Positions 13,228-64,000 of a DNA stretch of 64,000 nucleotides are shown here, in pieces; positions within the stretch are counted from its first letter, which is position 1; each line of letters starts with the position of its first letter. Origin of the DNA: Methylophilus methylotrophus DSM 46235 = ATCC 53528 (lineage in GTDB: Bacteria > Pseudomonadota > Gammaproteobacteria > Burkholderiales > Methylophilaceae); contig NZ_KB905144.1 of the NCBI RefSeq assembly GCF_000378225.1, forward strand, positions 1 through 64,000. Direction: 5' to 3'. The notes under the pieces were generated by a model. That model worked only from the letters and a program-made list of their open reading frames with translations, was not told the DNA's origin and ran no database searches. A program made the translations under genes and the position numbers.

Positions 13228-15132
13228 CTAATTAAAAGATAAAGGAATCGCCAGGGTAAAAAGCATCCCCCCCGCTTGTTGTTGCCATTTTACCTGAGCT
13301 TGCAGCAGCTCTGCACGCATCTGGATATTACCGATGCCACGTCCTTTTTTTATTTGCGTGATATCAAAACCCACACCATTGTCATCAATCGAAAAAAATA
13401 AATGTGCGTCAATCACCCCACTCGAACACGTCACCCTCGTCGCCGAAGCATGTTTAAGTATATTCACAAATACCTCTTGCAAAATGCGAAGAACATTCAG
13501 GATATGAGTAGGGGTGATCCATGGTATGACTGGCATGGCATCTATTTCCCGATGAAACTCGATCCCGGCCTGCGAGAACTTTTGATGAATGCGGTAGGCA
13601 TAATTCAACAGTGCTGCTTCCAGTGTATTTTCATCAGGTTCTATAGAATCAATCACCAATCTCAAGTCACTGATGCACTCTTCCAGGTAACCCTGCACTT
13701 GCTTGGGCGTAATTTGGCCACTTTTTAAAAGAATAAGTGTGGTTGACAGCGTGGATCCGAACCCATCGTGCATATCTTTCATCAAACGCTCTCGCTCCTG
13801 TAAAAGAAACTTTTGCTTCTCTTGCAGCTTCTTGCTTTCATAAACCTTGTGCAATTCCTGTTCGCGTTGTGCGAGTTTTGACTCCAAGTGTTGATTAGCA
13901 AGCTGAATATCCGTCATGGCTTGCAAGTATCGGGATCGCACGATTAACAGCAGTACAATCATTGAGCCAATTGAGGTATAAGGCAGCAAGTAAAAACTTT
14001 CGATACTCAACTGATAGTTTTGTAACATCAGATCATGGATACCAAAAGGGATATTTAAAATGAATACCCCAGTTAACCACACCCCCTCCTTAGAACTGCT
14101 TTTCCATGCAACCATCACCATCATGCATATGTACATCAGCAGGACGATAAAAATCACCAGGCTAGCCATAGACCATACCTGGCCAAAATCAGCCGCCCAA
14201 GGCAATATTGGCAACGTGAGCACACTGATCAGTAGCATCAATGTGCCTAAACACCATTGCAACTTCTTCAGTTTTAATCGATACAAATAGGAGCAAACGG
14301 CGTAGGTAAACACAATGGTCCAGCCAGAGGCATTGACCACCATCCAACTGAACCAGTCTTCAGGAATAAGGAGAGGATTCTCGCCAACGAAATACTGTAA
14401 ACAGCGCAAATGTGAAAATGCTGACACTGCAAAAAAAAGCAGATACACCCATTCATCGCGTTTTCTCAGCCATATGGAGAACGCGAATAAACCAGACAAC
14501 AGCAAGGCACTGCTGATGGTCTCCGGCAATCGGGTTTGCAAACTGGCCCGCACAAGATACTCAGGATATAGCTTGCGCTCCTCGTCAAAATAAATACGCG
14601 AAATAGCCATACCCGCCTGATGGCTGGCGTCTACACGAATCAGCAATTGCTTGGGGAGGGCGTTTGATTGAAAGGTTAACCAGATTGGATGATTGTAGCC
14701 ATTCCAGACCGCTCCGGTTTTAGACGCATACACTAACTGATTATCGGCATAGACTTTTATCAAGCCTATGGTTTGCCAACGGGGAATATATAGCGCATAA
14801 CTGTTATCAGAACCGGCTTGGGCAATGGCAGGGTTCACTCTAAAAAAATAACTGATTCGCTCATTAGCCTGATGGTTTGCTGCAATATTTCGTGGCTGAT
14901 AAAAGGGCAGTTTGACCGTTTGCCACCGTAATAGCAATGACGACACGGCAAGATCATTGACAGAATCCGCACCGACGCTTTTAGTCTTTGCCAACTCAAC
15001 ATGATCAGGCAGCAATGCAGCATGCGCATTTACTGCCAAAAGCCATGTCAACCAAAAGCAGAAAAGAAAAAGTAATATTCGCCACTTTTTTCTTCCGAGG
15101 CTATCGGCCATATCAATGCGATGGTTGTTCAT
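13228..15132 (-). CDS. 7TM sensor histidine kinase (HisKA_3 type)
   Basis: 634 residues. A signal/anchor segment (about 17-38) precedes a soluble periplasmic domain of about 150 residues, then seven hydrophobic segments (about 200-400), as in 7TMR-DISM receptors. A coiled-coil follows (QHLESKLAQREQELHKVYE), then the HisKA_3 phospho-acceptor motif MKDMHDGFGS near 455 and an HATPase domain with NILKHA, DDNGVGFD and GRGIGNIQMR. Such kinases phosphorylate NarL/FixJ regulators. The regulator gene lies 51 bases upstream on the same strand. The divergent neighbour is the TpsA gene, a likely target. The start could also be ATG 15111. Confidence 0.85.
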   Translation of the reverse strand: MNNHRIDMADSLGRKKWRILLFLFCFWLTWLLAVNAHAALLPDHVELAKTKSVGADSVNDLAVSSLLLRWQTVKLPFYQPRNIAANHQANERISYFFRVNPAIAQAGSDNSYALYIPRWQTIGLIKVYADNQLVYASKTGAVWNGYNHPIWLTFQSNALPKQLLIRVDASHQAGMAISRIYFDEERKLYPEYLVRASLQTRLPETISSALLLSGLFAFSIWLRKRDEWVYLLFFAVSAFSHLRCLQYFVGENPLLIPEDWFSWMVVNASGWTIVFTYAVCSYLYRLKLKKLQWCLGTLMLLISVLTLPILPWAADFGQVWSMASLVIFIVLLMYICMMVMVAWKSSSKEGVWLTGVFILNIPFGIHDLMLQNYQLSIESFYLLPYTSIGSMIVLLLIVRSRYLQAMTDIQLANQHLESKLAQREQELHKVYESKKLQEKQKFLLQERERLMKDMHDGFGSTLSTTLILLKSGQITPKQVQGYLEECISDLRLVIDSIEPDENTLEAALLNYAYRIHQKFSQAGIEFHREIDAMPVIPWITPTHILNVLRILQEVFVNILKHASATRVTCSSGVIDAHLFFSIDDNGVGFDITQIKKGRGIGNIQMRAELLQAQVKWQQQAGGMLFTLAIPLSFN

Positions 15133-15183
15133 CGGATAATGTGATTAACTATAATTTGTATTGCCAACCAGATACATGCAAGA

Positions 15184-15831
15184 TTAAATCCAAAAATTAT
15201 TTTTCGCCTTTTCAATCGCCTGCAACTTTGAGTTGACTTCTAATTTTTCATAAACACGACGGAGGTAAGTTTTCACCGTATGATGCGATAGCTCCATCAT
15301 TACCGAAATTTCTGACAAGCTCTTACCCTGGCTGACATGCTTTAATACTTGCGTTTCCCTGGCAGATAACAAACCTTTGGCGGCATCCACTGGCGCAAAT
15401 GGATCCGACATACTCGAAAAAAAAGCCAGCATCCGTTTTGCAATGGCCGGGCTTACCGTGGCCCCTTCTTGAACATTTAATAGCGTTGTCAGCAGGTCAT
15501 GATGCGTATCCTGCTTCTGAATATAGCCATGCGCCCCAGCCTGCAATGCCTTAAACAAACGGGCATCGTCCTCAAAAACACTATAAACGATGATTTTGCA
15601 GGCTGGCTGACAGGACCGTGCCTGATAGATGGCACTGACACCATCACCGTCAGGGAGACCAATATCTACTATCAAAAAGTCTAACGGCTCAGACTCTATC
15701 AACCCCAAACCGCTAGCCAATGCGTGCGTTGAAAAAACCGAATATACACGCTCATCGCTTTCCAAATGCACTTTGAGTGCCTCAGCTAGCAATGCATCAT
15801 CTTCAATAATCCCTATCTTGTACCTGGTCAT
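15184..15831 (-). CDS. NarL/FixJ-family response regulator
   Basis: 215 residues. The receiver domain (1-120) has the acidic pocket IIEDD near residue 9, phospho-acceptor Asp in FLIVDIGLPDGDG near 56 and the conserved Lys in GYIQKQ near 107. A LuxR-type helix-turn-helix occupies about 150-210: LSARETQVLKHVSQGKSLSEI and HHTVKTYLRRVYEKL. It is the first gene of a leftward pair with the sensor kinase. The divergent region to tpsA (15832-15922) contains a near-palindrome that recurs upstream of a PEP-CTERM gene, the best candidate for its binding site. Confidence 0.9.
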   Translation of the reverse strand: MTRYKIGIIEDDALLAEALKVHLESDERVYSVFSTHALASGLGLIESEPLDFLIVDIGLPDGDGVSAIYQARSCQPACKIIVYSVFEDDARLFKALQAGAHGYIQKQDTHHDLLTTLLNVQEGATVSPAIAKRMLAFFSSMSDPFAPVDAAKGLLSARETQVLKHVSQGKSLSEISVMMELSHHTVKTYLRRVYEKLEVNSKLQAIEKAKNNFWI

Positions 15832-15885
15832 GTGCTTGACTGCTTTATTTTTAACGATGGCATCTTAACTTAAAAAAATGTGGCA

Positions 15886-15907
15886 ATGTCGCACAACTGG
15901 GTGACAT
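15886..15907. promoter_or_regulatory. candidate operator dyad upstream of tpsA
   Basis: ATGTCGCAC, six bases, GTGACAT: an inverted repeat with one extra base in the left arm. The same arms with a different six-base spacer occur at 23778-23799. Identity continues rightwards through ACAAA and to TATGTTTAT/AATGTTTAT. The placement between the regulator gene and tpsA suggests a binding site for that regulator. The repeat is seen; the binding is inference. Confidence 0.55.
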
Positions 15908-15922
15908 ACAAACAATTATCGT

Positions 15923-18832
15923 ATGTTTATTATGAGAATTAATACAAATAAAAATCTCACGTCAATCATGTTTACGCCAAAATTAAAAAGAATTTACACG
16001 TTAATTTCACTGTGCTACGCACCCATGCTCATTGCAGGGCCTACAGATGGCCAGGTAATTTCTGGTTCCGCCATCATCCAGCAACAGGGCGCACTCACGC
16101 ATATTGAGCAATCTAGCCAAAACGCCATCATACAATGGCAAGGGTTCTCAATAGCGCCAGGCGAAACAACGCATTTTCAAATGCCGAGTGCGTCATCAGC
16201 CGTGTTAAACCGCGTGGTTGGCGGCAACCCGTCTGAGATTTATGGCACGCTCAGCTCTAATGGTCAAGTGTATCTCATTAACCCGAATGGGATTCTGATA
16301 GGCAACGGCGCCACTATCAACACAGCTGCCTTTATCGCCAGTACACGAGATATCAAAGACAGCGAGTTTCTGCTGGGCGGTACCTTAAACTTTTTTGGTA
16401 ATTCGCTCGCCAGCATCACCAATCTTGGTTCAATCAATGCCATTAGCGGCAATGTGTTTTTAATTGCACATAATGTAAGCAACCAAGGCACCATTAAAGC
16501 AGATGCGGGCACAGTCGGCATGGCAAGCGCCACAGACTTGATGTTGATGCCCTCCAGCAATGAAAAAATTCTGATCAAACCCACTGCCCTTCAAGATATG
16601 GGCAGTGTCGACAATCAAGGGCAAATTGCTGCCGCGCAAGTCGAACTCAAAGCCGTGGGCGGTAACCCTTATGCTCTAGCTGTAAATACGGGTGGCACTA
16701 TCAGTGCCATCAGCATAGATAACGTAGGCGGCAAAATCATTATCAATGCCAAATCAGGCACGGCAAGCGTGGGTGGCACACTCACTGCCAAACAAGGTGA
16801 TAAAGGCGGGGAGATTCAGGTCACAGGCCAGCATGTTGCGCTGACTGAGCAAGCCAGGCTGGATACCATTGGCAAAAATGCGGGCGGCACGATTGCGGTT
16901 GGTGGGGGGTTTAAAGGCGAAAACCCAGCCCTGCAAAACGCAGAAACACTCACCGTTGCCCAAGGCGCTGTTATCAATGCGGATGCCGTCGAACAAGGCA
17001 ATGGCGGCAATATTTATTTGTGGTCAGATAAAAACACACTTTACCGTGGCCACCTCAGTGCCAAAGGGGGTGAACTCAGCGGCGATGGTGGCTTTGCCGA
17101 AGTCTCAGGCAAGCAAGTGCTAAATTATCAGGGCACGGTAGACCTCTCTGCTAAAAATGGCACATTCGGCAATCTGTTGCTAGACCCTACAGACATCACC
17201 ATTAATAACGATCCAGCCACAGGCTCAACTGCCGTTTCAGGCAACACCTCAGTCATCACGGCCACAGACCTCAGAAACGCCCTCGCTTTAGCTGATGTGA
17301 CGATCACTACCAGCTCAGCGGGCGGCGGCAACGGTGACATCACATTTGCGGATGTCGCAGACAACACCGCTTATTTATTTGATGTAGGCAACCGCTCGCT
17401 CACACTCTTTGCCGAACGTGATATTAATGTCAACCAAGAAGTGCGTGTATTCGGCTTTGGTCCAAATTCAACTACCGCGGAGCTGAACCTCAAAGCTGGC
17501 CGCAACTTAACAGTCAATGGCGCCAATACCTATTTATGGTCAAACAATATCACTTTAGTTGCAGATAACAACAATGGCGGCACTGGCAACGGCACAATGT
17601 CATTTGCTAATGGCGTCAACTTATTTGGCGACAATATCCGCTTATTTGTCCCTTCTACCTCACAACTCACTTTACCTAGCTCAGCCAGTGTCAGCAACAA
17701 TCCACCCACCTTTGGTAAATACTTTGGCGATGCAGGCACTGCGGCCGCTGGCATTTATTACAAGCAAGGTTCAGCAAGCACTGGGGGTGGTAACACTGGT
17801 AGTAATCCAGGCGTCGGCACCCCACCACAACAGTGCGTGGCGGCGGGTTGCGGGATTGTAGTTGGATCAACACCAGTCATTACTGACCCCAATGCATTAC
17901 TAAGATTTCAACTAGCTCAACTGGGTTATTCTCTGGATGAAGCCGTAGCCAAAACAGGCGACACAAACTTTGCGTGGTGGCTACAAATTCTCAATGAAGC
18001 CAAACAAAAGCTGGCAAGCGACCCGAATGACGCTTCCGCAAGAAAGGTGGTTGAGCAATACGAAAAAACACTTTTGCAGGCTATGCTTAACAGGATGCCG
18101 CCCGTTGATAAAGATCATGATCAGCGCGTTGCAGACGCAAACAAATACAATGATCAAGATATTAATATGATGTTAAACAATATCAAATTACTCGAAGAGT
18201 CTATTTTTAAAAATGGGGTTAAACAGAACACACTCAAGTCTATTGCAGAATTGAAAGCAAAAATTGATTTAAAACTTGCCTCATTACAATTTAAGGAACT
18301 CGAAAACCTTGTTGGAACTGAATCGCTAGGTCAAGTGATGCTGCCTATGTTCATAAACGGTCAGCGTTTTAACGTAATAAACGACCTAATGTTATTTTCA
18401 GAAAAAGGCGGCGTAAAAGCACCATTATTGGACAGTTACGAAATAAACGGCCTTGATGGATTTTTTAATCTGAATGCATCAATATTTTTGCCTGGCGCTA
18501 CCAATACGTTCGCAAACTTCGTAAACCAAGCAAAAGAAAATATGAATAGTAAAAGTGCGCAATTAACTGCAGTGAACCAAGAAATAGAATCGTTATATAA
18601 AGAATTGTATACCAGCGGTGATAAATCGGTTGCCAGGCTATGGGAGTTACCTTCAAAAGCACGCGAGAAAATTACAAGCCTTGAAGATCAACGAGATCTG
18701 TTAGCAAAACAATTGGACGTTGCAAAAAAAGAAGTGCGCGATAAGGAGAACGCTAAAGCAATTTTTGAAAATTTAGCGCCCTCAATCATCTCCCGCGTAA
18801 ATGCTTTTAGATCCACTTTTAAAATTAATTGA
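15923..18832 (+). CDS. TpsA two-partner secretion exoprotein (filamentous haemagglutinin-like)
   Basis: Up to 969 residues; the start may instead be ATG 15932 or 15968, since none has a clear ribosome site. A signal peptide (about 16-38) leads to a TPS domain: QVISGSAIIQQQG, the motif NRVVGGNPSEIYG (about 96-108), LINPNGILIGNG (about 118-129) and GGTLNF. A beta-helix-like repeat region rich in Gly/Asn runs to about 610. At 638-643 stands CVAAGC, then about 320 residues of helical, coiled-coil-like, more A+T-rich coding sequence to the end. The partner TpsB gene follows directly. The passenger is probably a secreted or surface adhesin; the helical end is not standard for FHA. Confidence 0.87.
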   Translation: MFIMRINTNKNLTSIMFTPKLKRIYTLISLCYAPMLIAGPTDGQVISGSAIIQQQGALTHIEQSSQNAIIQWQGFSIAPGETTHFQMPSASSAVLNRVVGGNPSEIYGTLSSNGQVYLINPNGILIGNGATINTAAFIASTRDIKDSEFLLGGTLNFFGNSLASITNLGSINAISGNVFLIAHNVSNQGTIKADAGTVGMASATDLMLMPSSNEKILIKPTALQDMGSVDNQGQIAAAQVELKAVGGNPYALAVNTGGTISAISIDNVGGKIIINAKSGTASVGGTLTAKQGDKGGEIQVTGQHVALTEQARLDTIGKNAGGTIAVGGGFKGENPALQNAETLTVAQGAVINADAVEQGNGGNIYLWSDKNTLYRGHLSAKGGELSGDGGFAEVSGKQVLNYQGTVDLSAKNGTFGNLLLDPTDITINNDPATGSTAVSGNTSVITATDLRNALALADVTITTSSAGGGNGDITFADVADNTAYLFDVGNRSLTLFAERDINVNQEVRVFGFGPNSTTAELNLKAGRNLTVNGANTYLWSNNITLVADNNNGGTGNGTMSFANGVNLFGDNIRLFVPSTSQLTLPSSASVSNNPPTFGKYFGDAGTAAAGIYYKQGSASTGGGNTGSNPGVGTPPQQCVAAGCGIVVGSTPVITDPNALLRFQLAQLGYSLDEAVAKTGDTNFAWWLQILNEAKQKLASDPNDASARKVVEQYEKTLLQAMLNRMPPVDKDHDQRVADANKYNDQDINMMLNNIKLLEESIFKNGVKQNTLKSIAELKAKIDLKLASLQFKELENLVGTESLGQVMLPMFINGQRFNVINDLMLFSEKGGVKAPLLDSYEINGLDGFFNLNASIFLPGATNTFANFVNQAKENMNSKSAQLTAVNQEIESLYKELYTSGDKSVARLWELPSKAREKITSLEDQRDLLAKQLDVAKKEVRDKENAKAIFENLAPSIISRVNAFRSTFKIN

Positions 18833-18852
18833 TTAACTCTCAGGCAAAGATC

Positions 18853-20517
18853 ATGAAAAAATTTACCCATCAATTTGCGCATAAAAAAAATAAATGCCCG
18901 CAAAAAAATCAAGCGCTTTTTAAAAAAACCCATCTTTTCTTGATCACATGTTTGTTGATGAGTGCAATGGCAGTCCACGCGGAGCAGACTGATTTGGGCT
19001 TAATAAAAAAAATTAGGATTAGTTCAGGTAGTGAAAAAGTCGTATCCAGCGAAGATATAGATGTGCGTGAGTTCCCAAGTTTAAATATTAAGTTGTTAAA
19101 TAAGTTTATAAATCAACCTATCAACAAAGATCGTCTTGCAGAAATGATTCAAATTATCAATTCAGAGCTATACGTCAGTGGCAAGCCTTATATGATCGCG
19201 ACGTTACCTGAGCAAGATATATCTGACGGTAACATCCAAATTTTGGTCACTCAGGCGAGCGTGGGCGCTGTGAATGTGAAAAACATTGGTGAAAATGTGT
19301 TTAGTGAGGATACGCTCCGCCCCTTGTTGCGGGTAAAGCCTGGTGATGTATTAACGCAAGAAGTGCTGGATGAGGATGTGGAGTGGATTAACCGCTCTAA
19401 CCCCTACCGCAATGCAAAAATTGTCACCGAGCCTGGAAAGGCGTTTGGTCAAACCGATATCAGTTTGATGGTGACCGACCGGAAGCCTTATGCGTTTTCA
19501 TTAGGGTATGATAACTACGGCACCAAAACCACTGACCGCGACCGTGTGACTTTCTCTGCCGGATGGGGCAATGTGTTTGGCACTGACCAGCAAATCACCT
19601 ATGCATTAAACGGTAACCCTAACTTCAATCGTTTTGAGTCGCATAGCTTGAGTTATGTGGTACCGCTACCATGGCGGCATTTATTGAGCATTAGCGGTAA
19701 CGTTTCAAAAATCAACAGTGATCTGCCGCAACCGTTTGATTCACAAGGCCGAACCAGCATTTTATCCTTGCGCTATGACGCGCCGCTCAAACATTTACAT
19801 GACTACACGCACGGCCTCAACGCTGGCTTTGACTATAAACGGGCGGATAACAACCTGCTCTTTAGCCAAACGCCTGTTTCAAACACACTTACAAAAATCT
19901 ATCAGTTCAACCTAGGCTATAGCGGCACATTAAAAGACCGCTGGGGGCAAACCACAGGCTCACTCAACTGGGTCTATTCACCAGGAGGCTACGGCAACGA
20001 AAATGAAGATGCCGCCTTTAATGCCGCCAGATTCGGGGCTAAGTCAGATTATCAATATCAAACCTTATTCATACAGCGCGCCACCTATTTACCACATGAT
20101 TGGACATGGACGATTTCAGCGAGACTGCAATGGTCTGATACAAACCTGCTGGGTACCGAGCAGTTAACGGGCGGTGGTGTGCAGTCTGTGCGTGGATTTG
20201 CCGAAGCTTATGCGTTTGGTGACGAAGGCTCTGTGATTCGTACCGAGCTTCAAAGCCCATTCTGGGAGCTTGGTAGTGGCAAAGCCACCTCTCGCCTGCA
20301 AGGCGTGTTGTTTTACGACGCGGCCCGCTTAAACAGTGTAGACAAACTGCCAGGTGAAGAAGCAAATAAACGTTTAAGTGCCTGGGGGGTAGGCTTAAGA
20401 GCAGGCCTGCCATATCAGTTCACCATGCGCGTGGATGCTGCCAAACAATTGGTGGCGGATGTGCCTGGGATTGATACGCAAAATATTGTGCACTTTAGCT
20501 TGAACAAGAGTTTTTAA
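18853..20517 (+). CDS. TpsB outer-membrane transporter (ShlB/FhaC/HecB family)
   Basis: 554 residues from ATG 18853; a TTG at 18829 overlapping the tpsA stop is possible but less likely. A signal peptide ends near HAEQ. Two POTRA-type segments (about 50-210) are followed by a 16-strand-type barrel. The conserved barrel-lumen motif SVRGF appears near 445, and the C-terminus ends in Phe (NKSF), as barrel proteins do for BAM recognition. TpsB proteins bind the TPS domain and export the TpsA partner across the outer membrane. The adjacency and order tpsA-tpsB make the pairing clear. Confidence 0.9.
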   Translation: MKKFTHQFAHKKNKCPQKNQALFKKTHLFLITCLLMSAMAVHAEQTDLGLIKKIRISSGSEKVVSSEDIDVREFPSLNIKLLNKFINQPINKDRLAEMIQIINSELYVSGKPYMIATLPEQDISDGNIQILVTQASVGAVNVKNIGENVFSEDTLRPLLRVKPGDVLTQEVLDEDVEWINRSNPYRNAKIVTEPGKAFGQTDISLMVTDRKPYAFSLGYDNYGTKTTDRDRVTFSAGWGNVFGTDQQITYALNGNPNFNRFESHSLSYVVPLPWRHLLSISGNVSKINSDLPQPFDSQGRTSILSLRYDAPLKHLHDYTHGLNAGFDYKRADNNLLFSQTPVSNTLTKIYQFNLGYSGTLKDRWGQTTGSLNWVYSPGGYGNENEDAAFNAARFGAKSDYQYQTLFIQRATYLPHDWTWTISARLQWSDTNLLGTEQLTGGGVQSVRGFAEAYAFGDEGSVIRTELQSPFWELGSGKATSRLQGVLFYDAARLNSVDKLPGEEANKRLSAWGVGLRAGLPYQFTMRVDAAKQLVADVPGIDTQNIVHFSLNKSF

Positions 20518-20544
20518 TCATGGATTTATTGTTAAGAGAGCATA

Positions 20545-21313
20545 GTGCCTAGTCCTCATATTGCAAAAACGGCTCGATGGATCATGTTAGCCACCACGTT
20601 TAGCCTTGGCGCGCTGAGCCTCAACGCGCAAGGCAAGGCTACCTCCATCACTACCAGTGATGACAGAGAACTGGTGTATAGCTCGGTGAGCGATCTGAGC
20701 TGGACCAGAGATGCCAACTTATTTGCCACTCAAGGCTTTTACATTGTGGTGGATGCCATCATTGCCGCCAGCTCCGCCAATAGCAAGACGCTTAACCGGT
20801 ATAGCCCATTTGGCAACTACCCCCTCAGTGCCAGTGACTTTTCTAGTAATGACAGAACGCTTTGGTTTGTTGCCATGACCGATGTCAACCACCTCAATAA
20901 GATTCACCATGGTGGTAGCAACCAATGACGTGTGCCTACGGTTGCCAACACATCATTTGACTATAACACCGGCCCCAACGGTAACGCCAGGGGCGATGAA
21001 CTGGCTGAAATTTTTATGTAGCACGGGAGCGTACTTGGGAGGCGTTATTATCAACACACCAGTTTCTGATAACGAGTAGGCTGATGCATACTGGTCTGGC
21101 TTAAGACTGGTCATTCATCCCTTGTTAGGCGTGGATATTCGATACTTTTAGTGGCTACTAAAACAGCGAGATGAAGTGCTTCCAAGTATATAAAAGGGCG
21201 GTGCCTGCGAACAAATGGTGGCAGTGCAGGCGCCTCATAGCATGGCAATATCGCTGGCTATTTTAGGCTTGGTCGGCTTAGCCGACCGCAAATGGAAACC
21301 AAGTTGCCTTTAA
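20545..21313 (+). pseudogene. decayed PEP-CTERM protein gene, relative of 23935-24765
   Basis: Opens with GTG 20545 and a signal peptide like that of the 23935 gene (TARWIMLATTFSL versus TVKLIMLASTLIL; both then SLNAQ). It reads LVYSSVSDLSWTRDANL, matching LVYSSVSNVTWTKDANL of the intact relative. After HGGSNQ a TGA replaces the expected Trp of NQW. Homology continues (RGDELAEIF versus DGDELAELY), then TAG 21019, a net one-frame shift, further stops (first at 21077), and a degenerate C-terminal sorting signal ending near 21313 (SLAILGLVGLADRKWK). Several stops plus a frameshift show a real pseudogene, not one sequencing error. Confidence 0.8.
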
Positions 21314-21392
21314 AGATCGTTTATCTCCGGAAGAGCTACCTAGCGTGATAAGTGTGATTTCTTTGTTTTTATTGCCTCCTGAAAGGATTGAT

Positions 21393-23585
21393 ATGCGTAG
21401 TGTGCAAACATTTTTATTAAAACCTATTTATGCAGCTTTGCTTGTTCATTCCTCAATTTATATGAGCAATACTGCGATTGCAGCTGGTCGTGTAGATTTT
21501 GTCGAAATAAGCATTCCAAAAACCAGTGAATTTTTCTCTGTCAATTTGGTTTCAAGTGCAATAAACGATTTTGGGCAAGTCTCAGGAAATGTTTCATATG
21601 TGAGAAATAACGCTAGTTTTTCCCAATTTCGTAGAGGGTTTGTGTTTAACAATACAATCACTCAATATGAGCCACTGGTACCAAGCGGCTTTGTGGGGAG
21701 TACTGCCGCAAATGGCATCAATAATGCAGGGTTTGCAACCGGCTTTTCAGATACCAGTTCAGGTATGCGGTTTGTCACATTTAAAGAGGGCGTGACGAAT
21801 AATCTTGGTAGTGGTGAAGGGTTAGCAATCAACCAATCAGGTTGGATTGCAGGATGGAGTAACCTGCAAGCGTTTGTTTTTAATGGGACGTCCACCCTCT
21901 CTTTAGGAAATCTCTTAGGCGCTAGTCGGGCAAATGACATCAATGATCACGGCCAAGTAGTTGGTCGGGGTACTTTTAACGGGGCGCAACGTGCTTTTCT
22001 CTACAGTAATGGCAATGTGCTTGACCTAGGTACATTGGGTGGCGCATCAAGCACTGCAACTGCCATCAATAATCGTGGGGTCATCGTAGGGTCATCGTTA
22101 AACTCTTCAGGTGCGAATAGAGCATTCATTTACGAAAACGGTGTGATGCGCGATTTAGGCACTTTAGGGGGGAACTCATCTATTGCAAATAATTTAAACG
22201 ATAGTGGCCAAATCGTAGGCTCAAGTGATAACAGTGCATTTTTGTACACAGGGTTTCAGAATAGCGCACTCATCAATTTAAATTTAATCGCGCCATCAGG
22301 TTGGACTCTGACCTCTGCACAGGATATCAATCGTTACGGTCAGATTTTGGTCAATGGGAGTCATCAGAATCAATCTAAATCACTTGTCATCACCCTCCAT
22401 CCCGAGTGGCAGGGTACAAGCGGCAATTGGGACGATGCCACAAAGTGGAACTTTGGTGGTTTGGGGGCTTTAAATAATCTGACACCGGGTTTGCCCCACG
22501 ACGTGATTATCAGTGGCAATAACACGAGCCTCACCGTGAATGGCAGCCAAAATGCCGAGATTAAATCTCTTTTAGTGAGTGGTGCGCAAGGCCAAGTAAC
22601 GACACTTGATCTACAAAATGGTCGGATTAGCACAAAAAATGGCGCTACTTTTAATGCCAATAGCCAGCTTACAGGTAATGGTAATTTAGATGGGAACATA
22701 GTGTTAAACAGCGGCAGCCAAGTACGTGTTTCAAGTGGACAATCCATGTTGTTATCTGGTGGATTAGTCTCAAACAATGGTGCCGTGCGTGTGTTAGGAA
22801 GCAACGCCAATGCAGCGAACCTAACTGTAGCGCAAGCCTTTCAAAACCAGGCTTCAGGACAAATTAATTTGCAAAATGCGAATGTTGAGTTACTCAATAC
22901 ACTTGTGAACAACGGGCTTATAACTGTAAGCGCTGGTAATAGCAACCTCTTTGGAAATGTCATTAATACCAGCAACGGTCGATTATTTTTATCAGGAAAT
23001 AGCAACACTACATTCTACGACACCGTTGAAATATCCTCCGGCGGAGAATTAAGAGTCTCAGCGGGTTCAACTGCAACCTTTTTTGGCGAAATGATTCAAC
23101 GAACTGGCGCAATCATGTCAGGTAATGGAACAAAATTTTACGAGGGCGGGCTATCGGTAGGTAACTCTCCAGGCCTGGGTGTCGATGCAGGGAATGTGAG
23201 TTTTGGCGCATCAAATCAGTATTTAGCTGAAATCGGCGGTACTTTTATTGGTGACTCCAATGGCAATGGATTGCAATTTGACCGCTACATCGTCAATGGC
23301 ACCTTAACGCTCGGTGGTACATTAAAGCTAGTTTCATGGAATAGTTTTATTGCAGAATCAGGTCAGAGCTTTGATTTGTTTGATTGGGGTAATTTAATTG
23401 GACAGTTTGATGTGATTGACACCAGCGGATTGAGCATAGCGAGCGGCGCGCAACTGGATTTATCGCGTTTGTATGTAGATGGAACAATAAGTGTAACTCC
23501 TGTGCCAGAACCCAGTGGCTACGCTTTCATGTTAGCTGGACTTGGCTTGATTGCTTATGCCTCACGCAAGCGCAAACCGATTTGA
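21393..23585 (+). CDS. PEP-CTERM protein with HAF repeats
   Basis: 730 residues from ATG 21393; GAAAGG seven bases upstream supports this over ATG 21345. A signal peptide ends near AIAA. Residues about 60-330 contain repeated units with DLGTLGG and INNRGVIVGSS or LNDSGQIVGSS, the HAF extracellular repeat. A second half of Gly/Asn/Ser-rich beta-helix-like sequence (passenger style, GNSPGLG) follows. The end is a PEP-CTERM signal: PVPEPSGYAF, a hydrophobic helix, then SRKRKPI. Exosortase systems cut such signals and release or anchor the protein outside. No exosortase gene is in the window. A terminator hairpin follows. Confidence 0.88.
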   Translation: MRSVQTFLLKPIYAALLVHSSIYMSNTAIAAGRVDFVEISIPKTSEFFSVNLVSSAINDFGQVSGNVSYVRNNASFSQFRRGFVFNNTITQYEPLVPSGFVGSTAANGINNAGFATGFSDTSSGMRFVTFKEGVTNNLGSGEGLAINQSGWIAGWSNLQAFVFNGTSTLSLGNLLGASRANDINDHGQVVGRGTFNGAQRAFLYSNGNVLDLGTLGGASSTATAINNRGVIVGSSLNSSGANRAFIYENGVMRDLGTLGGNSSIANNLNDSGQIVGSSDNSAFLYTGFQNSALINLNLIAPSGWTLTSAQDINRYGQILVNGSHQNQSKSLVITLHPEWQGTSGNWDDATKWNFGGLGALNNLTPGLPHDVIISGNNTSLTVNGSQNAEIKSLLVSGAQGQVTTLDLQNGRISTKNGATFNANSQLTGNGNLDGNIVLNSGSQVRVSSGQSMLLSGGLVSNNGAVRVLGSNANAANLTVAQAFQNQASGQINLQNANVELLNTLVNNGLITVSAGNSNLFGNVINTSNGRLFLSGNSNTTFYDTVEISSGGELRVSAGSTATFFGEMIQRTGAIMSGNGTKFYEGGLSVGNSPGLGVDAGNVSFGASNQYLAEIGGTFIGDSNGNGLQFDRYIVNGTLTLGGTLKLVSWNSFIAESGQSFDLFDWGNLIGQFDVIDTSGLSIASGAQLDLSRLYVDGTISVTPVPEPSGYAFMLAGLGLIAYASRKRKPI

Positions 23586-23602
23586 ATCATAAAATCAACG
23601 CG

Positions 23603-23638
23603 CAAGCACGTTACCCGCATTAGCTGGTACGTGCTTTT
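23603..23638 (+). terminator. rho-independent terminator after HAF/PEP-CTERM gene
   Basis: AAGCACGTTACC pairs with GGTACGTGCTT (one bulge) around a loop of about ten bases, followed by TTTT. Confidence 0.7.
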
Positions 23639-23777
23639 GCTATGTATGGGGTCGAGGACCTAGCGCTAACACCCTATTCTCTCAAAATGACCCTGGCCAT
23701 ATCGCGAATATGCCAGACGCCAAGCTTTAGTACCCCCCCTTGACTGACGTACTGACTCAGATCAGTAAACTGCCTTT

Positions 23778-23799
23778 ATGTCGCACCATCGGGTGACAT
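23778..23799. promoter_or_regulatory. candidate operator dyad upstream of PEP-CTERM gene
   Basis: ATGTCGCAC, CATCGG, GTGACAT: same arms as the site at 15886-15907 with a changed spacer. It is 136 bases before ATG 23935. Conservation of arms but not spacer is what a protein-binding dyad would show. Confidence 0.55.
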
Positions 23800-23934
23800 A
23801 CAAATCATCAACGAATGTTTATGATTAACAAAAAATAAATCAGCCACCTGGAACTGATATTACGCGGTCATTAGAAAAACATGCAGCCGCCTGAACGTGC
23901 GTTTTAATCATTTTTCATCCTCTAGAAAGAAAGC

Positions 23935-24765
23935 ATGATTCCTAATCTTCAAATTGCAAAAACGGTTAAATTGATCATGTTAGCCAGCACATTAATCCTT
24001 ATCGCTTTTAGCCTCAACGCGCAAGCCGCGCTTATCAGCTACTCCAATGCTGGGAAGGATTTGGTCTATAGCTCTGTAAGCAATGTCACTTGGACTAAGG
24101 ATGCTAATTTATTAAAAACGATGATTGAAGCAAGAGGACTTGAGCCTCTAGTTGAGGATATTTTGGCGGTGACACCAAGCATCAGTAACACACCAAACTA
24201 TCTGAGTCCAAATGGTAATTATGTGTTATCAATTTTTGATTTTAATGATGGAGATATATCAAATATTTCTGGTGTTTCAACCTGGTTTGGCGCCTTAGCC
24301 TTTGTTAATTATTTAAACCATATTAATTATGCTGGTAGCAATCAGTGGCAACTGCCATTAGGGACATATCGGACATGGTATCAACTTGTTTTTAATTTCG
24401 GTAGATCAATAGGAAATGGCACCACAGATGGTGATGAGCTCGCTGAACTTTACTATCATGAACTTGGTAGACAACAGCTAGAAGGGTTTCCTGATACAGA
24501 TATTTTCGATCAAGAACAAATTAATGCAAATTACTGGTACGGTAATGAAAGTGGCTCTATGACAGGCGAGTATGCATGGGCCTTTAATTTTAGAGAAGGT
24601 GATCAAAAAATTAGAGAGAAAGGAGAGCAATATTTTTATTATGCGTGGGCAATCACGCCAGGTCGAATTTCAGCAGTACCAGAACCTGAGAGCGTGGTCA
24701 TGATGTTGGTTAGTTTAGGCCTGATGGCTGGGGTGGTTCGTCGCAAGCAAAAATCATTTGGCTAA
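23935..24765 (+). CDS. PEP-CTERM protein with Lcl/DUF1566-like domain
   Basis: 276 residues. A signal peptide ends near NAQAA. The mature region begins with KDLVYSSVSNVTWTKDANLL and contains NYLNHINYAGSNQWQLPLG and DGDELAELYYHEL, the pattern of secreted PEP-CTERM proteins with an Lcl-like (DUF1566-type) fold. The C-terminus is a sorting signal: AVPEPESVVMMLVSLGLMAG, then VVRRKQKS. AGAAAGAAAGC precedes the ATG. The gene at 20545 is a broken relative. The next gene begins within about 80 bases and probably shares the transcript. Confidence 0.85.
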   Translation: MIPNLQIAKTVKLIMLASTLILIAFSLNAQAALISYSNAGKDLVYSSVSNVTWTKDANLLKTMIEARGLEPLVEDILAVTPSISNTPNYLSPNGNYVLSIFDFNDGDISNISGVSTWFGALAFVNYLNHINYAGSNQWQLPLGTYRTWYQLVFNFGRSIGNGTTDGDELAELYYHELGRQQLEGFPDTDIFDQEQINANYWYGNESGSMTGEYAWAFNFREGDQKIREKGEQYFYYAWAITPGRISAVPEPESVVMMLVSLGLMAGVVRRKQKSFG

Positions 24766-24841
24766 AAATAACACTTGCTGCTGTGAAGCAGACGACTTTC
24801 AAGGATGCCAGTTGACGATGGATAGTTTGGAAAATTTTACG

Positions 24842-26026
24842 ATGAGCTTAAAAAGCAGAAGCAAATTTATATCAGCGCAGGCATTACTTTTTATGGGATT
24901 GAGTTCACCTAATGCTGGGGCCTATGTTGTTAGTGATCAAAGTTTAAATGCAGTACAACAAGCCAATGCGCAAATTTGGACATGGAGTTGGGGCGATCCC
25001 GCAACAAGCCTACCAGCTATCAAGACTTTTGGCTTTAATAGTACTGGTAGCCAAGTCGTTCCTGATAATTACTACGTTGGCGGTACCGGCGTTTCAAGAG
25101 AGACTAAATTGTCTGGACCGATCATATATTCAGATAATATCCAACGCAAACTTGAAGCCAGTGCATTATCAGTGGCGAGTGCACGGTCTGGGCAAATAAT
25201 CACAAAAACCAACAGCAATAATTTTGACGGGACTCGGATTGATAAAGCAAATGGCAGTGTATCTGCATTCGCTACTGCAGCGGCAGAATTAAAGAATTAC
25301 TGGAACTTCACACTAGACCCATCTAACCGGAGCACAGCAGAACTGTCAACACACCCATTAGACTTTCAACTTACCTTGGATGTGAATTCCAGATTGTTAC
25401 CTACACTTAATCATGATTATGCTTTTCAGCCAGCGCATACTGGTATCAGTATTTTGACAGTTGAATTTAATTTATTCAATCTTGCTTGGCAACCAGCCAA
25501 TATTTCGACGACAAGCGATGGCAGGCCAGCCGTAAAAACAATTACTTATACTTACAACATCGACGCCAACTCTCCGAATCAGCAGACTTTCACCATAAAT
25601 GAAAGTATTGATAAGTTAATAGAGTATTGGTCTATTGGTGGCAGTGCAAGCGGTGGCCTTGTATTCCCCGTTGACGGAGATAATAGTGCGAAGTCTCGCA
25701 CTTGTTTAGATGCTGTAGCAGGTGCATTGTCACAAATGTGTAATATTAGTCTCTCAACCCACATTAAGCTTGAAACACGAGGTGGTTTTTCAGAAGTCAC
25801 TTTGAACGCAAATTGGGATGCGAGCATTAACGGAAATAAAGATGGTATTTTAGCGGTGAATACCTCCGCAGCGCGCTGGGGTGAGCCTCTTGATTCCTCA
25901 CTTTTGATCCCTCCATCACAAATATCACCAGTGCCTGAACCTGGCAGCTTCATGCTGCTGTTTGCAGGTTTAGGCTTGATGACAAGCGTGGTGCGTCGCA
26001 AGCAAAACACCTCCTGCAGAAGCTAG
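24842..26026 (+). CDS. PEP-CTERM protein of unknown function
   Basis: 394 residues from ATG 24842; ATG 24818 is also possible as neither has a strong ribosome site. A signal peptide (MSLKSRSKFISAQALLFMGL) leads to a beta-rich extracellular domain rich in Asn/Thr/Ser, with a Cys pair (CLDAVAGALSQMC) that could form a disulfide. The end carries PVPEPGSFMLLFAGLGLM, then VVRRKQ, a clear exosortase signal. I recognise no other domain. It follows the 23935 gene closely and is probably co-expressed. Confidence 0.8.
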   Translation: MSLKSRSKFISAQALLFMGLSSPNAGAYVVSDQSLNAVQQANAQIWTWSWGDPATSLPAIKTFGFNSTGSQVVPDNYYVGGTGVSRETKLSGPIIYSDNIQRKLEASALSVASARSGQIITKTNSNNFDGTRIDKANGSVSAFATAAAELKNYWNFTLDPSNRSTAELSTHPLDFQLTLDVNSRLLPTLNHDYAFQPAHTGISILTVEFNLFNLAWQPANISTTSDGRPAVKTITYTYNIDANSPNQQTFTINESIDKLIEYWSIGGSASGGLVFPVDGDNSAKSRTCLDAVAGALSQMCNISLSTHIKLETRGGFSEVTLNANWDASINGNKDGILAVNTSAARWGEPLDSSLLIPPSQISPVPEPGSFMLLFAGLGLMTSVVRRKQNTSCRS

Positions 26027-26121
26027 CACTTTCAAAGATAGGTTACCGATTCTTCTTATTTTCAGTGATTGTGCAGTGACTTTTATTAAAGAGCCGGGCA
26101 GCCCCAATATTATATCGGTGG

Positions 26122-27012
26122 CTAGAAAAACCAGCCCAACCGAAATACCAGATCAGAATTGATTTTCAGGTCGTTATCCACCCGACTATCTTGAGAATAG
26201 CGTAATGAGAAAAAAGTGAGGGGGGTAAGCATTTTACGCGCCGCAAGAAAATAGCGTTGCTGGTTGGTTGGATTGTCAAGATCAAACGCATCGACACGTT
26301 GCGCTCCTCCCCAGTTTAATTGTACGCCACTACTGAATTCCCAGCCGGGGATAGGTTGCCAGCGCAAGTAAGTGGTGATAGCGTAAACGTCTGATTGCCT
26401 GAGCCTGTAGTTGGCAACATAATCTGTGTTGGTTGAAAATCGCTTCCATTCAGGCGTGAAGTCCCAGTAAAGGGACTCTGATAGCTTTTGCACCCACCCC
26501 AGCTGCATTGAAAGTATCCAGCGATTATCACCTGCATTAAGTGCCTGGTCATGATCATAACGGCCAGTGGGTGGTGTCACATTCGTAGAAACCGCTAAAG
26601 AATAGCCTTTATCAGGCGAGTAAATTGGCCAGAAGTTGTAGGTAAAGCGAAGGTCACTCAAGCCGACTGCGCTTTCGCCAAATCCGGGAGGCAAAGCACC
26701 CGCTGTCTGTTCTGCCTTGATGTAAGGCAAGGTGATTGACCAAGAATTGGGATGGCCTAATATTTCCCCGTATTGGGTATAGGCAAATACCAGAGCCTGC
26801 CCTCTCAGCTGACCGTCATAGGCTCGTTTGCCTCCCACATAGTAGTCTGAAAACTCACGGTGAAAATAAAATGCAGAGATTAATCGCGTCCCCGCCGGCA
26901 GCACGATGTATTCCGCAGGAAAGATTTCTGTTCCAGCAAAAGAGAATGTTACGATGAAAATATTGATTACGCTAATCAAAAATCCGATAGTTATTCTCTT
27001 TACAAACATCAT
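26122..27012 (-). CDS. outer-membrane protein, phenol-degradation MetA-like transporter family
   Basis: 296 residues from ATG 27012 (27009 possible). A hydrophobic leader ends near FSFAG. The mature part reads as antiparallel strands with GFGESAVGLSDLRFTYNFWPIY and STNVTPPTGRYD, typical of the MetA-pathway outer-membrane family (PF13557), and ends with aromatic LGWFF. Substrate unknown. It begins seven bases after acpS on the same strand, so it is the tail of that transcript; this is not a usual partner of acpS. Confidence 0.75.
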   Translation of the reverse strand: MMFVKRITIGFLISVINIFIVTFSFAGTEIFPAEYIVLPAGTRLISAFYFHREFSDYYVGGKRAYDGQLRGQALVFAYTQYGEILGHPNSWSITLPYIKAEQTAGALPPGFGESAVGLSDLRFTYNFWPIYSPDKGYSLAVSTNVTPPTGRYDHDQALNAGDNRWILSMQLGWVQKLSESLYWDFTPEWKRFSTNTDYVANYRLRQSDVYAITTYLRWQPIPGWEFSSGVQLNWGGAQRVDAFDLDNPTNQQRYFLAARKMLTPLTFFSLRYSQDSRVDNDLKINSDLVFRLGWFF

Positions 27013-27018
27013 AAACAA

Positions 27019-62619: not shown

Positions 62620-64000
62620 TTAAAGCAATACTTTCTCGATACCGCCGTTATTGGCTTTCTGGATGTAGTTTTCCATCCAGTTTTCACCGAGCACGTGCTT
62701 GGCCATTTCCACCACAATGTAGTCAGCCTCAATACCGGTATCATCACCGTAACGTGACAGGCCTTGCAGGCAGCTTGGGCAAGAAGTCAAGATTTTGACG
62801 GGTTGCTCAGGCGCACCCACGGTCAGGCCCATCTTGGCCATGCCTTTTTCCAGCTCTTCCTGCTTGCGGAATTTCACTTGGGTGGCAATGTCGGGACGTG
62901 CTGCCGCAAACGTACCGGACTCGCCGCAGCAACGGTCATTCAATGCAACTTCGGTGCCCATCAGCTTGTTGGTGACTTCCAGTGGTTTGTAAGTCTTCAT
63001 CGGCGTGTGGCATGGGTCATGGTACATGTAGCGCGTACCGGTGACACCTTGCAGGCGCATGTCTTTTTCCATGAGGTATTCGTGGATATCGAGCAGACGG
63101 CAGCCTGGGAAAATCTTCTCAAACTCGTATTTCTGCAACTGATCCATACACGTCCCGCAAGACACGATCACGGTCTTGATATCCAGATAATTCAATGTAT
63201 TGGCCACACGGTGGAACAACACACGGTTATCCGCCGTGATTTCCTGACCTTTATCATGATTACCCGCAGCCGTTTGCGGGTAGCCGCAGCACAGGTAGCC
63301 TGGTGGCAATACGGTGATCGCCCCCACTTCATACAGCATGGCTTGCGTCGCTAGGCCCACGTTGGAGAACAGGCGCTCGGAGCCACAACCCGGGAAGTAG
63401 AACACGGCTTCCGAATCCTCAGTCACTTTTTGCGGATTGCGGATGACCGGAATCATGGTGTCATCTTCCAGCCCCATCATCGCACGTGACGTCTTGGACT
63501 GCATTTTCTTGGGCATTGGCCTGTTAATGAAGTGAATCACCTGCGCCTTGATTTCTGCCCTGCCCACGGTCGCTGGTGGTGCTTTCTTGTCTTTTAGCAA
63601 ACCAAATTTCTTGGCCAGGCTGTTGGCGATATTAATGGCTTTATAGCCCATTTGTATCATGGTGCCGCGCAGCAATTTGATCGTTGCCGGGTCTTTGACG
63701 TTCAGGAACATCATGCCAGCTGCGGTGCCAGGGTTGAATTTCTTTTTACCCTGTTCGCGCAGGAAATTGCGCATCTTCACAGACACATCACCGAAGTCGA
63801 TATTCACCGGGCACGGCTTCTCGCAACGGTGGCAGACCGTACAATGGTCAGCGACGTCGTTGAATTCGTCAAAATGCTTGAGCGAAATACCGCGGCGTGT
63901 CTGCTCTTCGTACAAGAAGGCTTCGATCAGCAGCGATGTCCCCAGAATTTTGTTCCGTGGAGAATACAGCAGGTTGGCTCGTGGCACATGGGTGGTACAC
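62620..64000 (-). CDS. Fe-S oxidoreductase (C-terminal part; DUF3683/GlcD-like), runs off the window
   Basis: At least 460 residues; the frame stays open to the window edge (CTTHVPRANLL before the GTG at 63987), so the true start is outside. It has a 4Fe-4S motif CTVCHRCEKPCPVN, two CCG domains (FYFPGCGSERLF...LCCGYPQTA; YHDPCHTP...DRCCGESG) and a late SCPSCLQG. This matches the C-terminal half of the large FAD/Fe-S dehydrogenases of betaproteobacteria, which oxidise hydroxy acids such as lactate or glycolate. The FAD part is not in view, so substrate is unknown. Confidence 0.85.
   Translation of the reverse strand, partial: CTTHVPRANLLYSPRNKILGTSLLIEAFLYEEQTRRGISLKHFDEFNDVADHCTVCHRCEKPCPVNIDFGDVSVKMRNFLREQGKKKFNPGTAAGMMFLNVKDPATIKLLRGTMIQMGYKAINIANSLAKKFGLLKDKKAPPATVGRAEIKAQVIHFINRPMPKKMQSKTSRAMMGLEDDTMIPVIRNPQKVTEDSEAVFYFPGCGSERLFSNVGLATQAMLYEVGAITVLPPGYLCCGYPQTAAGNHDKGQEITADNRVLFHRVANTLNYLDIKTVIVSCGTCMDQLQKYEFEKIFPGCRLLDIHEYLMEKDMRLQGVTGTRYMYHDPCHTPMKTYKPLEVTNKLMGTEVALNDRCCGESGTFAAARPDIATQVKFRKQEELEKGMAKMGLTVGAPEQPVKILTSCPSCLQGLSRYGDDTGIEADYIVVEMAKHVLGENWMENYIQKANNGGIEKVLL

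What the first reader, a model, noticed from the sequence alone, without database searches (positions are those of the whole stretch)
15886..23822. Shared dyad block upstream of tpsA and of a PEP-CTERM gene
ATGTCGCAC-N6-GTGACAT occurs at 15886-15907 and 23778-23799. Arms are identical, spacers differ, and similarity continues for another 20 or so bases. The first copy lies between a NarL-type regulator and tpsA. This predicts one regulon in which the two-component system controls a secreted TPS protein and exosortase-sorted proteins.
Basis: partly seen in the sequence, partly recalled or inferred. Interest (0 to 1): 0.7.

Follow-up and report, generated by a model that had tools for sequence, protein, structure and literature searches.

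The report
Response-regulator promoter box, two copies
Two copies of a 48-base promoter block in a methanol-eating bacterium probably let one sensor-regulator pair switch on two neighbouring sets of cell-surface protein genes, a reasonable but fairly ordinary local control circuit.

Summary
The dyad is better written ATGTCGCAC-N4-GGGTGACAT (22 bp, 7 of 9 arm positions paired) and heads a 48-bp block ending in TATNAT. The two window copies share 39/48 bases; their flanks are unrelated. The exact dyad occurs only twice in the 2.86-Mb Methylophilus genome. Of 187 genomes of the family, 3 hold the exact dyad and 3 hold a close regulator match (E <= 1e-45): the same three. In each, a site lies between the divergent regulator and tpsA. 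The block is conserved at 43-46/48, its flanks at 50-76%. Kinase, regulator, tps and PEP-CTERM genes form an island between thiF and acpS. Best reading: the regulator's operator joined to a weak -10 promoter, activating tpsA and, from a second copy, the downstream PEP-CTERM genes. The wider claim fails: 15 of 18 PEP-CTERM matches lie outside the island, with no exact site. Binding and activation are inferred. The kind is known (BvgA and fha; DVUA0057 and PEP-CTERM genes); I met no description of this operator in the passages and listings I saw.

The parts
15886..15907 (+). Dyad 1 (ATGTCGCAC-N4-GGGTGACAT), predicted operator, in the intergenic region between the regulator and tpsA
15886..15933 (+). 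48-bp block 1: dyad + ATACAAA-N10-ATGTTTAT + -10-like TATTAT (15928-15933); predicted start about 15940
23778..23799 (+). Dyad 2, predicted second operator
23778..23825 (+). 48-bp block 2 with -10-like TATGAT (23820-23825); predicted start about 23832
13228..15132 (-). Histidine kinase (HATPase_c below the curated cut-off; weak HisKA_3 and 7TMR-DISM_7TM matches)
15184..15831 (-). NarL/LuxR-type response regulator (Response_reg + GerE), 215 aa
15968..18832 (+). tpsA, TPS-domain protein (954 aa from this start, chosen because it is the one shared by the three orthologues)
18829..20517 (+). tpsB, ShlB/FhaC/HecB-type outer-membrane partner (as listed, from a TTG; true start probably further in)
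20545..21258 (+). Decayed copy of an Lcl_C/PEP-CTERM gene (first open frame 127 aa; intact relatives in G014); end is that of the last DNA match
21345..23585 (+). 746-aa PEP-CTERM protein gene, absent from the same place in G014 and G004 (start as listed)
23602..23640 (+). Hairpin with a short T-run, possible terminator between the first gene set and block 2; found by folding, not reported by the terminator scan on this strand
23935..24765 (+). PEP-CTERM protein (Lcl_C just below its cut-off), first gene after block 2
24758..26026 (+). PEP-CTERM protein, second gene after block 2

Best explanation
The block is an activator-dependent promoter cassette of a local two-component system. The histidine kinase (13228-15132) phosphorylates the NarL-type regulator (15184-15831). 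The regulator binds the 22-bp dyad as a dimer, centred near -43.5, and recruits sigma-70 RNA polymerase to a promoter with a -10 (TATNAT) but no recognisable -35. Copy 1 drives tpsA-tpsB and the genes behind them. Copy 2, after a possible terminator, drives the two PEP-CTERM genes 23935 and 24758. In the two relatives a single site stands at the head of the whole set, so copy 2 probably keeps the downstream genes under the same control after the set was split by the 746-aa gene. Shown: sites, block, conservation, co-occurrence, island. Inferred: phosphotransfer, binding, start sites, activation rather than repression, termination, one transcript per set.
For: Exact site twice in 2.86 Mb. Exact site in 3 of 187 family genomes and regulator match at E <= 1e-45 in 3 of 187, the same three. 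Site between divergent regulator and tpsA in all three. In the three orthologous intergenic regions the block keeps 43-46 of 48 bases, the upstream flank 29-42 of 55, the downstream flank 17-21 of 34. Sites 1 and 2 share 39/48 with unrelated flanks. Dyad to -10-like hexamer is 20 bp in 4 of 4 copies. The right half of the block at up to 3 mismatches finds only the 4 known places in the 3 genomes searched, reversed control 0. Kinase and regulator stand next to thiF in 3 of the 20 genus genomes where thiF was found, the same three that carry the tps/PEP-CTERM set.
Against: No binding or expression data. The three genomes probably inherit one island, so the co-occurrence is close to one event, not three. 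The sigma-70 scan found no promoter in either region, so the -10 is assigned by eye. The hairpin before block 2 (-19.1 kcal/mol, z -3.57) was not reported by the terminator scan on the + strand, which instead listed two sites on the - strand there. The dyad keeps the same two unpaired positions in 4 of 4 copies, which a symmetric dimer site does not need. Repression or autoregulation would leave the same sequence traces. At up to 3 mismatches the dyad pattern has 46 places against 24 for the reversed control; 13 of the 44 others were read, all 13 inside long open frames and without the downstream half.
Confidence: 0.75

Rival explanations
1. The dyad is the regulator's operator, but it represses tpsA and the PEP-CTERM genes, or mainly serves autoregulation of the regulator gene, which is divergent from tpsA.
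For: Site 1 lies in the shared regulator/tpsA intergenic region, and the block covers the -35/-10 region where a repressor could also sit.
Against: Site 2 has no divergent regulator beside it. The conserved part runs from the dyad towards tpsA and 23935, not towards the regulator. The absence of a -35 suits activation.
Confidence: 0.12
2. Another DNA-binding protein, not the adjacent regulator, binds the block.
For: No direct evidence ties this regulator to the dyad.
Against: 184 of 187 family genomes show neither the exact site nor a regulator match at E <= 1e-45 (119 of the 187 are at least 90% complete and at most 5% contaminated). A widely conserved factor would be expected to leave sites elsewhere.
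Confidence: 0.07
3. The repeats are recombination or insertion ends of a mobile unit, or a leftover of a segmental duplication.
For: Two direct copies 7.9 kb apart flank a gene block, and the gene set is an island.
Against: G014 and G004 have the island with one exact copy each, just upstream of tpsA, and the right half of the block occurs once in each at up to 3 mismatches. The similarity is confined to 48 bp. No exact hit in viral contigs.
Confidence: 0.03
4. The dyad acts in RNA as a leader hairpin.
For: The strand can form a 7-pair stem, one pair being G-U.
Against: 0 of 13 predicted pairs show a change on both sides, and the arms are invariant in 4 of 4 copies. A -10-like hexamer lies 20 bp downstream, so the transcript would start after the dyad.
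Confidence: 0.03

Closest known systems
BvgAS control of the fha operon (Bordetella)
   Same: BvgA, a homologue of NarL, activates the fha operon for filamentous haemagglutinin; in Pptx the promoter-proximal BvgA site abuts the -35 (passages of PMC7250471). That FHA is a TPS protein is recalled.
   Different: Different operator: here one 22-bp dyad (BvgA heptamer arrays are recalled). Here PEP-CTERM genes share the box. Orthology of the kinase to BvgS not tested.
DVUA0057 regulon of Desulfovibrio vulgaris
   Same: A response regulator with PEP-CTERM genes as targets: five predicted ones were enriched in DAP-chip (passages of PMC3333781).
   Different: That regulator lies in a ten-gene, exopolysaccharide-related operon on a plasmid; its DNA-binding type was not in the passages I saw. 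Here the regulator is NarL-type and local.
PrsK-PrsR and RpoN control of PEP-CTERM genes
   Same: Two-component system linked to PEP-CTERM genes; a pepA gene depends on RpoN1 (passages of PMC9850573).
   Different: PrsR belongs to a Fis-type system; here the DNA-binding domain is GerE.
VraR, DesR, ChrA, NarL, DevR, EvgA (solved response regulators)
   Same: Among the 11 PDB sequences that match the regulator at E <= 1e-10 (1.4e-18 to 5e-12).
   Different: Distant matches by sequence; their binding sites were not compared.

Membership tests
NarL/FixJ (LuxR-type) response regulator | Receiver domain plus GerE HTH | tested here: met
   PF00072 5.4e-18 and PF00196 2.6e-15, both over cut-off; Asp in FLIVDIGLPDG
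Two-component system | Adjacent histidine kinase with His/dimerisation and ATPase domains | tested here: inconclusive
   HATPase_c 23.1, 25.9 and 28.9 bits in G000, G014, G004 against a cut-off of 26.4; HisKA_3 below cut-off in G000 and G014 and not reported for G004
Transcription-factor operator | Site co-occurs with its regulator and is conserved against its flanks | tested here: met
   Same 3 of 187 genomes; block 43-46/48; shared descent of the island weakens the first part
Transcription-factor operator | Regulator binds the site and changes expression | not testable with these tools
   needs bench work
Two-partner secretion pair | TPS-domain protein with ShlB/FhaC partner gene beside it | tested here: met
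   PF05860 2.9e-27 and PF03865 7.7e-33; frames as listed overlap by 4 bp
Exosortase/PEP-CTERM system | PEP-CTERM proteins and an exosortase in the genome | tested here: met
   18 PEP-CTERM matches; one Exosortase_EpsH match, 2.0e-68
PrsK/PrsR sigma-54 PEP-CTERM regulon | Fis-type regulator | tested here: not met
   DNA-binding domain of this regulator is GerE; whether the genome also has PrsK/PrsR was not searched

The most novel reading that the evidence does not exclude
A portable 48-bp cassette (activator box plus -10) was re-created in front of the downstream half of a split operon, so that one NarL-type system still co-expresses a TPS-secreted protein and exosortase-sorted proteins as one cell-surface programme carried on an island.
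Probability: 0.5. Interest if true: 0.45.

Novelty: new member of a known kind. Interest (0 to 1): 0.36.

Why it matters
It gives a concrete, cheaply testable operator for a two-component system of Methylophilus for which I saw no study. It also puts two surface-export routes (TPS and exosortase) under one predicted signal; the held library returned no paper with both terms 'PEP-CTERM' and 'two-partner secretion' (other spellings not searched). It suggests how a promoter can be replaced when an operon is split. Beyond that it is an ordinary kind of local regulation.

Tried and rejected
General PEP-CTERM regulon: rejected. 15 of 18 PEP-CTERM matches lie outside the island, and neither the exact dyad nor the right half of the block at up to 3 mismatches occurs elsewhere in the genome. 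By comparing coordinates, no dyad-like place at up to 3 mismatches lies within 1 kb of any of those 15.

Looser dyad copies: 46 places at up to 3 mismatches against 24 for the reversed control. Of the 44 others, loci were held for 13: all 13 lie in stop-to-stop frames of at least 120 codons and miss the downstream half by 9 or more mismatches. One more, at 63026, lies within a listed frame of the window. The remaining 30 were not looked at, so a few weak sites are not excluded.

RNA element: no pair changed on both sides. Phage or mobile end: no exact hit in viral contigs.

Distant regulator homologues (33-36%): I read the surroundings of four, in G010, G012 and two plasmids. All four have a kinase match near; none has a tpsA, tpsB or Lcl_C-gene match by tblastn. 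In G010 the end of a 1184-aa PATR protein beside the regulator resembles the 746-aa protein (E 1e-4). The plasmid stretches carry no annotation, and I listed their frames only.

Conservation beyond the family: hardly tested. The genome-contig scan gave one close match (96%, Methylophilus sp. 13) and two distant ones (33% and 24%); it missed the 66% match of G004, so it is not sensitive. The family search scored at most 16 candidates per genome.

Full report
WHAT IS THERE. Both dyads are at the stated coordinates. The symmetric element is best written ATGTCGCAC-N4-GGGTGACAT, 22 bp, with 7 of 9 arm positions complementary. In the two window copies the similarity runs for 48 bp, from the start of the dyad through ATACAAA-N10-ATGTTTAT to a TATNAT hexamer (39/48). 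It then ends on both sides: 60-bp flanks match at 20/60 and 19/60. Taking the best ungapped 48-mer on each direct diagonal of the window, 6 diagonals reach 34 matches. This pair is second, behind a pair of paralogous coding sequences; three Markov-sampled control windows reached 34 nowhere. The relaxed dyad has two exact places in the 2.86-Mb genome, both here.

SURROUNDINGS. To the left on the minus strand lie a histidine kinase (weak HATPase_c) and a 215-aa regulator with receiver and GerE domains. To the right are tpsA (TPS domain) and tpsB (ShlB/FhaC), then a decayed Lcl_C/PEP-CTERM gene (20545 to about 21258), a 746-aa PEP-CTERM gene, a hairpin at 23602-23640, block 2, and two PEP-CTERM genes. 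The hairpin folds at -19.1 kcal/mol, z -3.57, with 1 of 200 shuffles as good. The terminator scan did not report it on the + strand but listed two overlapping sites on the - strand, so I call it a possible terminator only. The genome holds one EpsH-type exosortase match.

RELATIVES. The genus is Methylophilus, from the record title of the nearest relative, Methylophilus sp. 13; its contig has the same length, 115,022 bases, as the G014 contig. Of 187 family genomes searched, own included, 3 hold the exact dyad and 3 hold a regulator match at E <= 1e-45: G000, G014 and G004 in both. Of the 187, 119 are at least 90% complete and at most 5% contaminated. Regulator identity to the window's is 96% in G014 and 66% in G004; kinase identity is 92% and 58%. 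By domain in G004 the receiver is 79/120, the linker 15/29 and the HTH part 47/66 identical, so the HTH is only slightly better kept. In both relatives the single site lies between regulator and tpsA. Pairwise over the three orthologous regions, the block keeps 45, 43 and 46 of 48, the upstream flank 42, 32 and 29 of 55, the downstream flank 20, 17 and 21 of 34, gaps counted as differences. The dyad-to-hexamer distance is 20 bp in 4 of 4 copies.

ISLAND. thiF was found in 20 of 22 genus genomes. In 3 of these 20 the kinase gene stands next to thiF. In 14 of 20, acpS lies within 115 bp of thiF, the empty arrangement. In 2 (L107, L110) about 1 kb lies between them, and in 1 (L109) acpS was not seen in the 1.5-kb flank. 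The gene set with its regulator and site is therefore a variable island. Close matches to the 422-aa PEP-CTERM protein (69-82%) are in G014 and G004, with a 42% relative in G010, which has no exact dyad. Close tpsA matches (85-87%, in G014 only the first 309 residues) are in the same two; other TPS proteins at 33-40% are found in most of the genus (17 of 22 genomes have some match at E <= 1e-30).

MECHANISM. If TATNAT is the -10, the start would be about 15940 and 23832 and the dyad centre -43.5 in all four copies. No -35 is recognisable and the sigma-70 scans report nothing. This is a usual geometry for an activator that touches polymerase at the -35 region (general knowledge). The regulator would thus drive tpsA-tpsB from block 1 and 23935-24758 from block 2. 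In G014 and G004 one site heads a set in which PEP-CTERM genes follow tps genes directly (in G014 tpsA is short and no tpsB was found; in G004 the Lcl-type gene is a remnant). In the window the 746-aa gene and the hairpin separate the two parts, and block 2 stands at the new head. The 746-aa protein has partial matches in 4 of the other 21 genus genomes, none in G014 or G004, at E <= 1e-10. That block 2 arose to restore control is inference.

LIMITS. The three genomes probably share the island by descent, so the co-occurrence is not three independent events; the argument rests more on the block/flank contrast and on the second copy with unrelated flanks. Direction of control is not shown. Looser dyads exceed the reversed control (46 against 24); 13 of the 44 others were read and are inside open frames without the downstream half, one more lies in a listed frame of the window, 30 were not looked at.

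KNOWN KINDS. Control of a haemagglutinin operon by a NarL homologue is known (BvgA and fha, passages of PMC7250471), as is two-component control of PEP-CTERM genes (passages of PMC3333781, and PMC9850573). A Methylophilus comparative paper mentions PEP-CTERM once and holds no occurrence of 'two-component' or 'exosortase' (term search of PMC8399692). Searches of the held library were made; in their listings and the passages read I met no description of this operator. No search was made for the operator's letters in the literature.

VERDICT. Real, specific and conserved; a new local operator of a known kind. Interest moderate to low.

Noticed in passing
window 13228-27018: The regulator/tps/PEP-CTERM set is an island between thiF and acpS, present in 3 of the 20 Methylophilus genomes in which thiF was found; two others have about 1 kb of something else at the same junction.
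   Followed up: partly
window 20545-21258: Decayed paralogue of the 23935 PEP-CTERM gene; G014 has three intact paralogues in tandem.
   Followed up: partly
L051 11940-15522: In G014 tpsA is cut to 318 aa and no tpsB was found in the stretch, yet regulator, site and PEP-CTERM genes are kept, which suggests that the PEP-CTERM genes alone can maintain the circuit.
   Followed up: partly
window 15904-15926: A second inverted repeat, ACATAC-N11-GTATGT, overlaps the dyad's end in 3 of 4 copies (GAATGT in copy 2); it might be a second contact (by eye).
   Followed up: no
L098 7206-11784: In G010 a distant regulator homologue (33%) with a kinase nearby sits beside a 1184-aa PATR-repeat protein whose end resembles the 746-aa PEP-CTERM protein; such regulators may often sit beside surface protein genes.
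   Followed up: no
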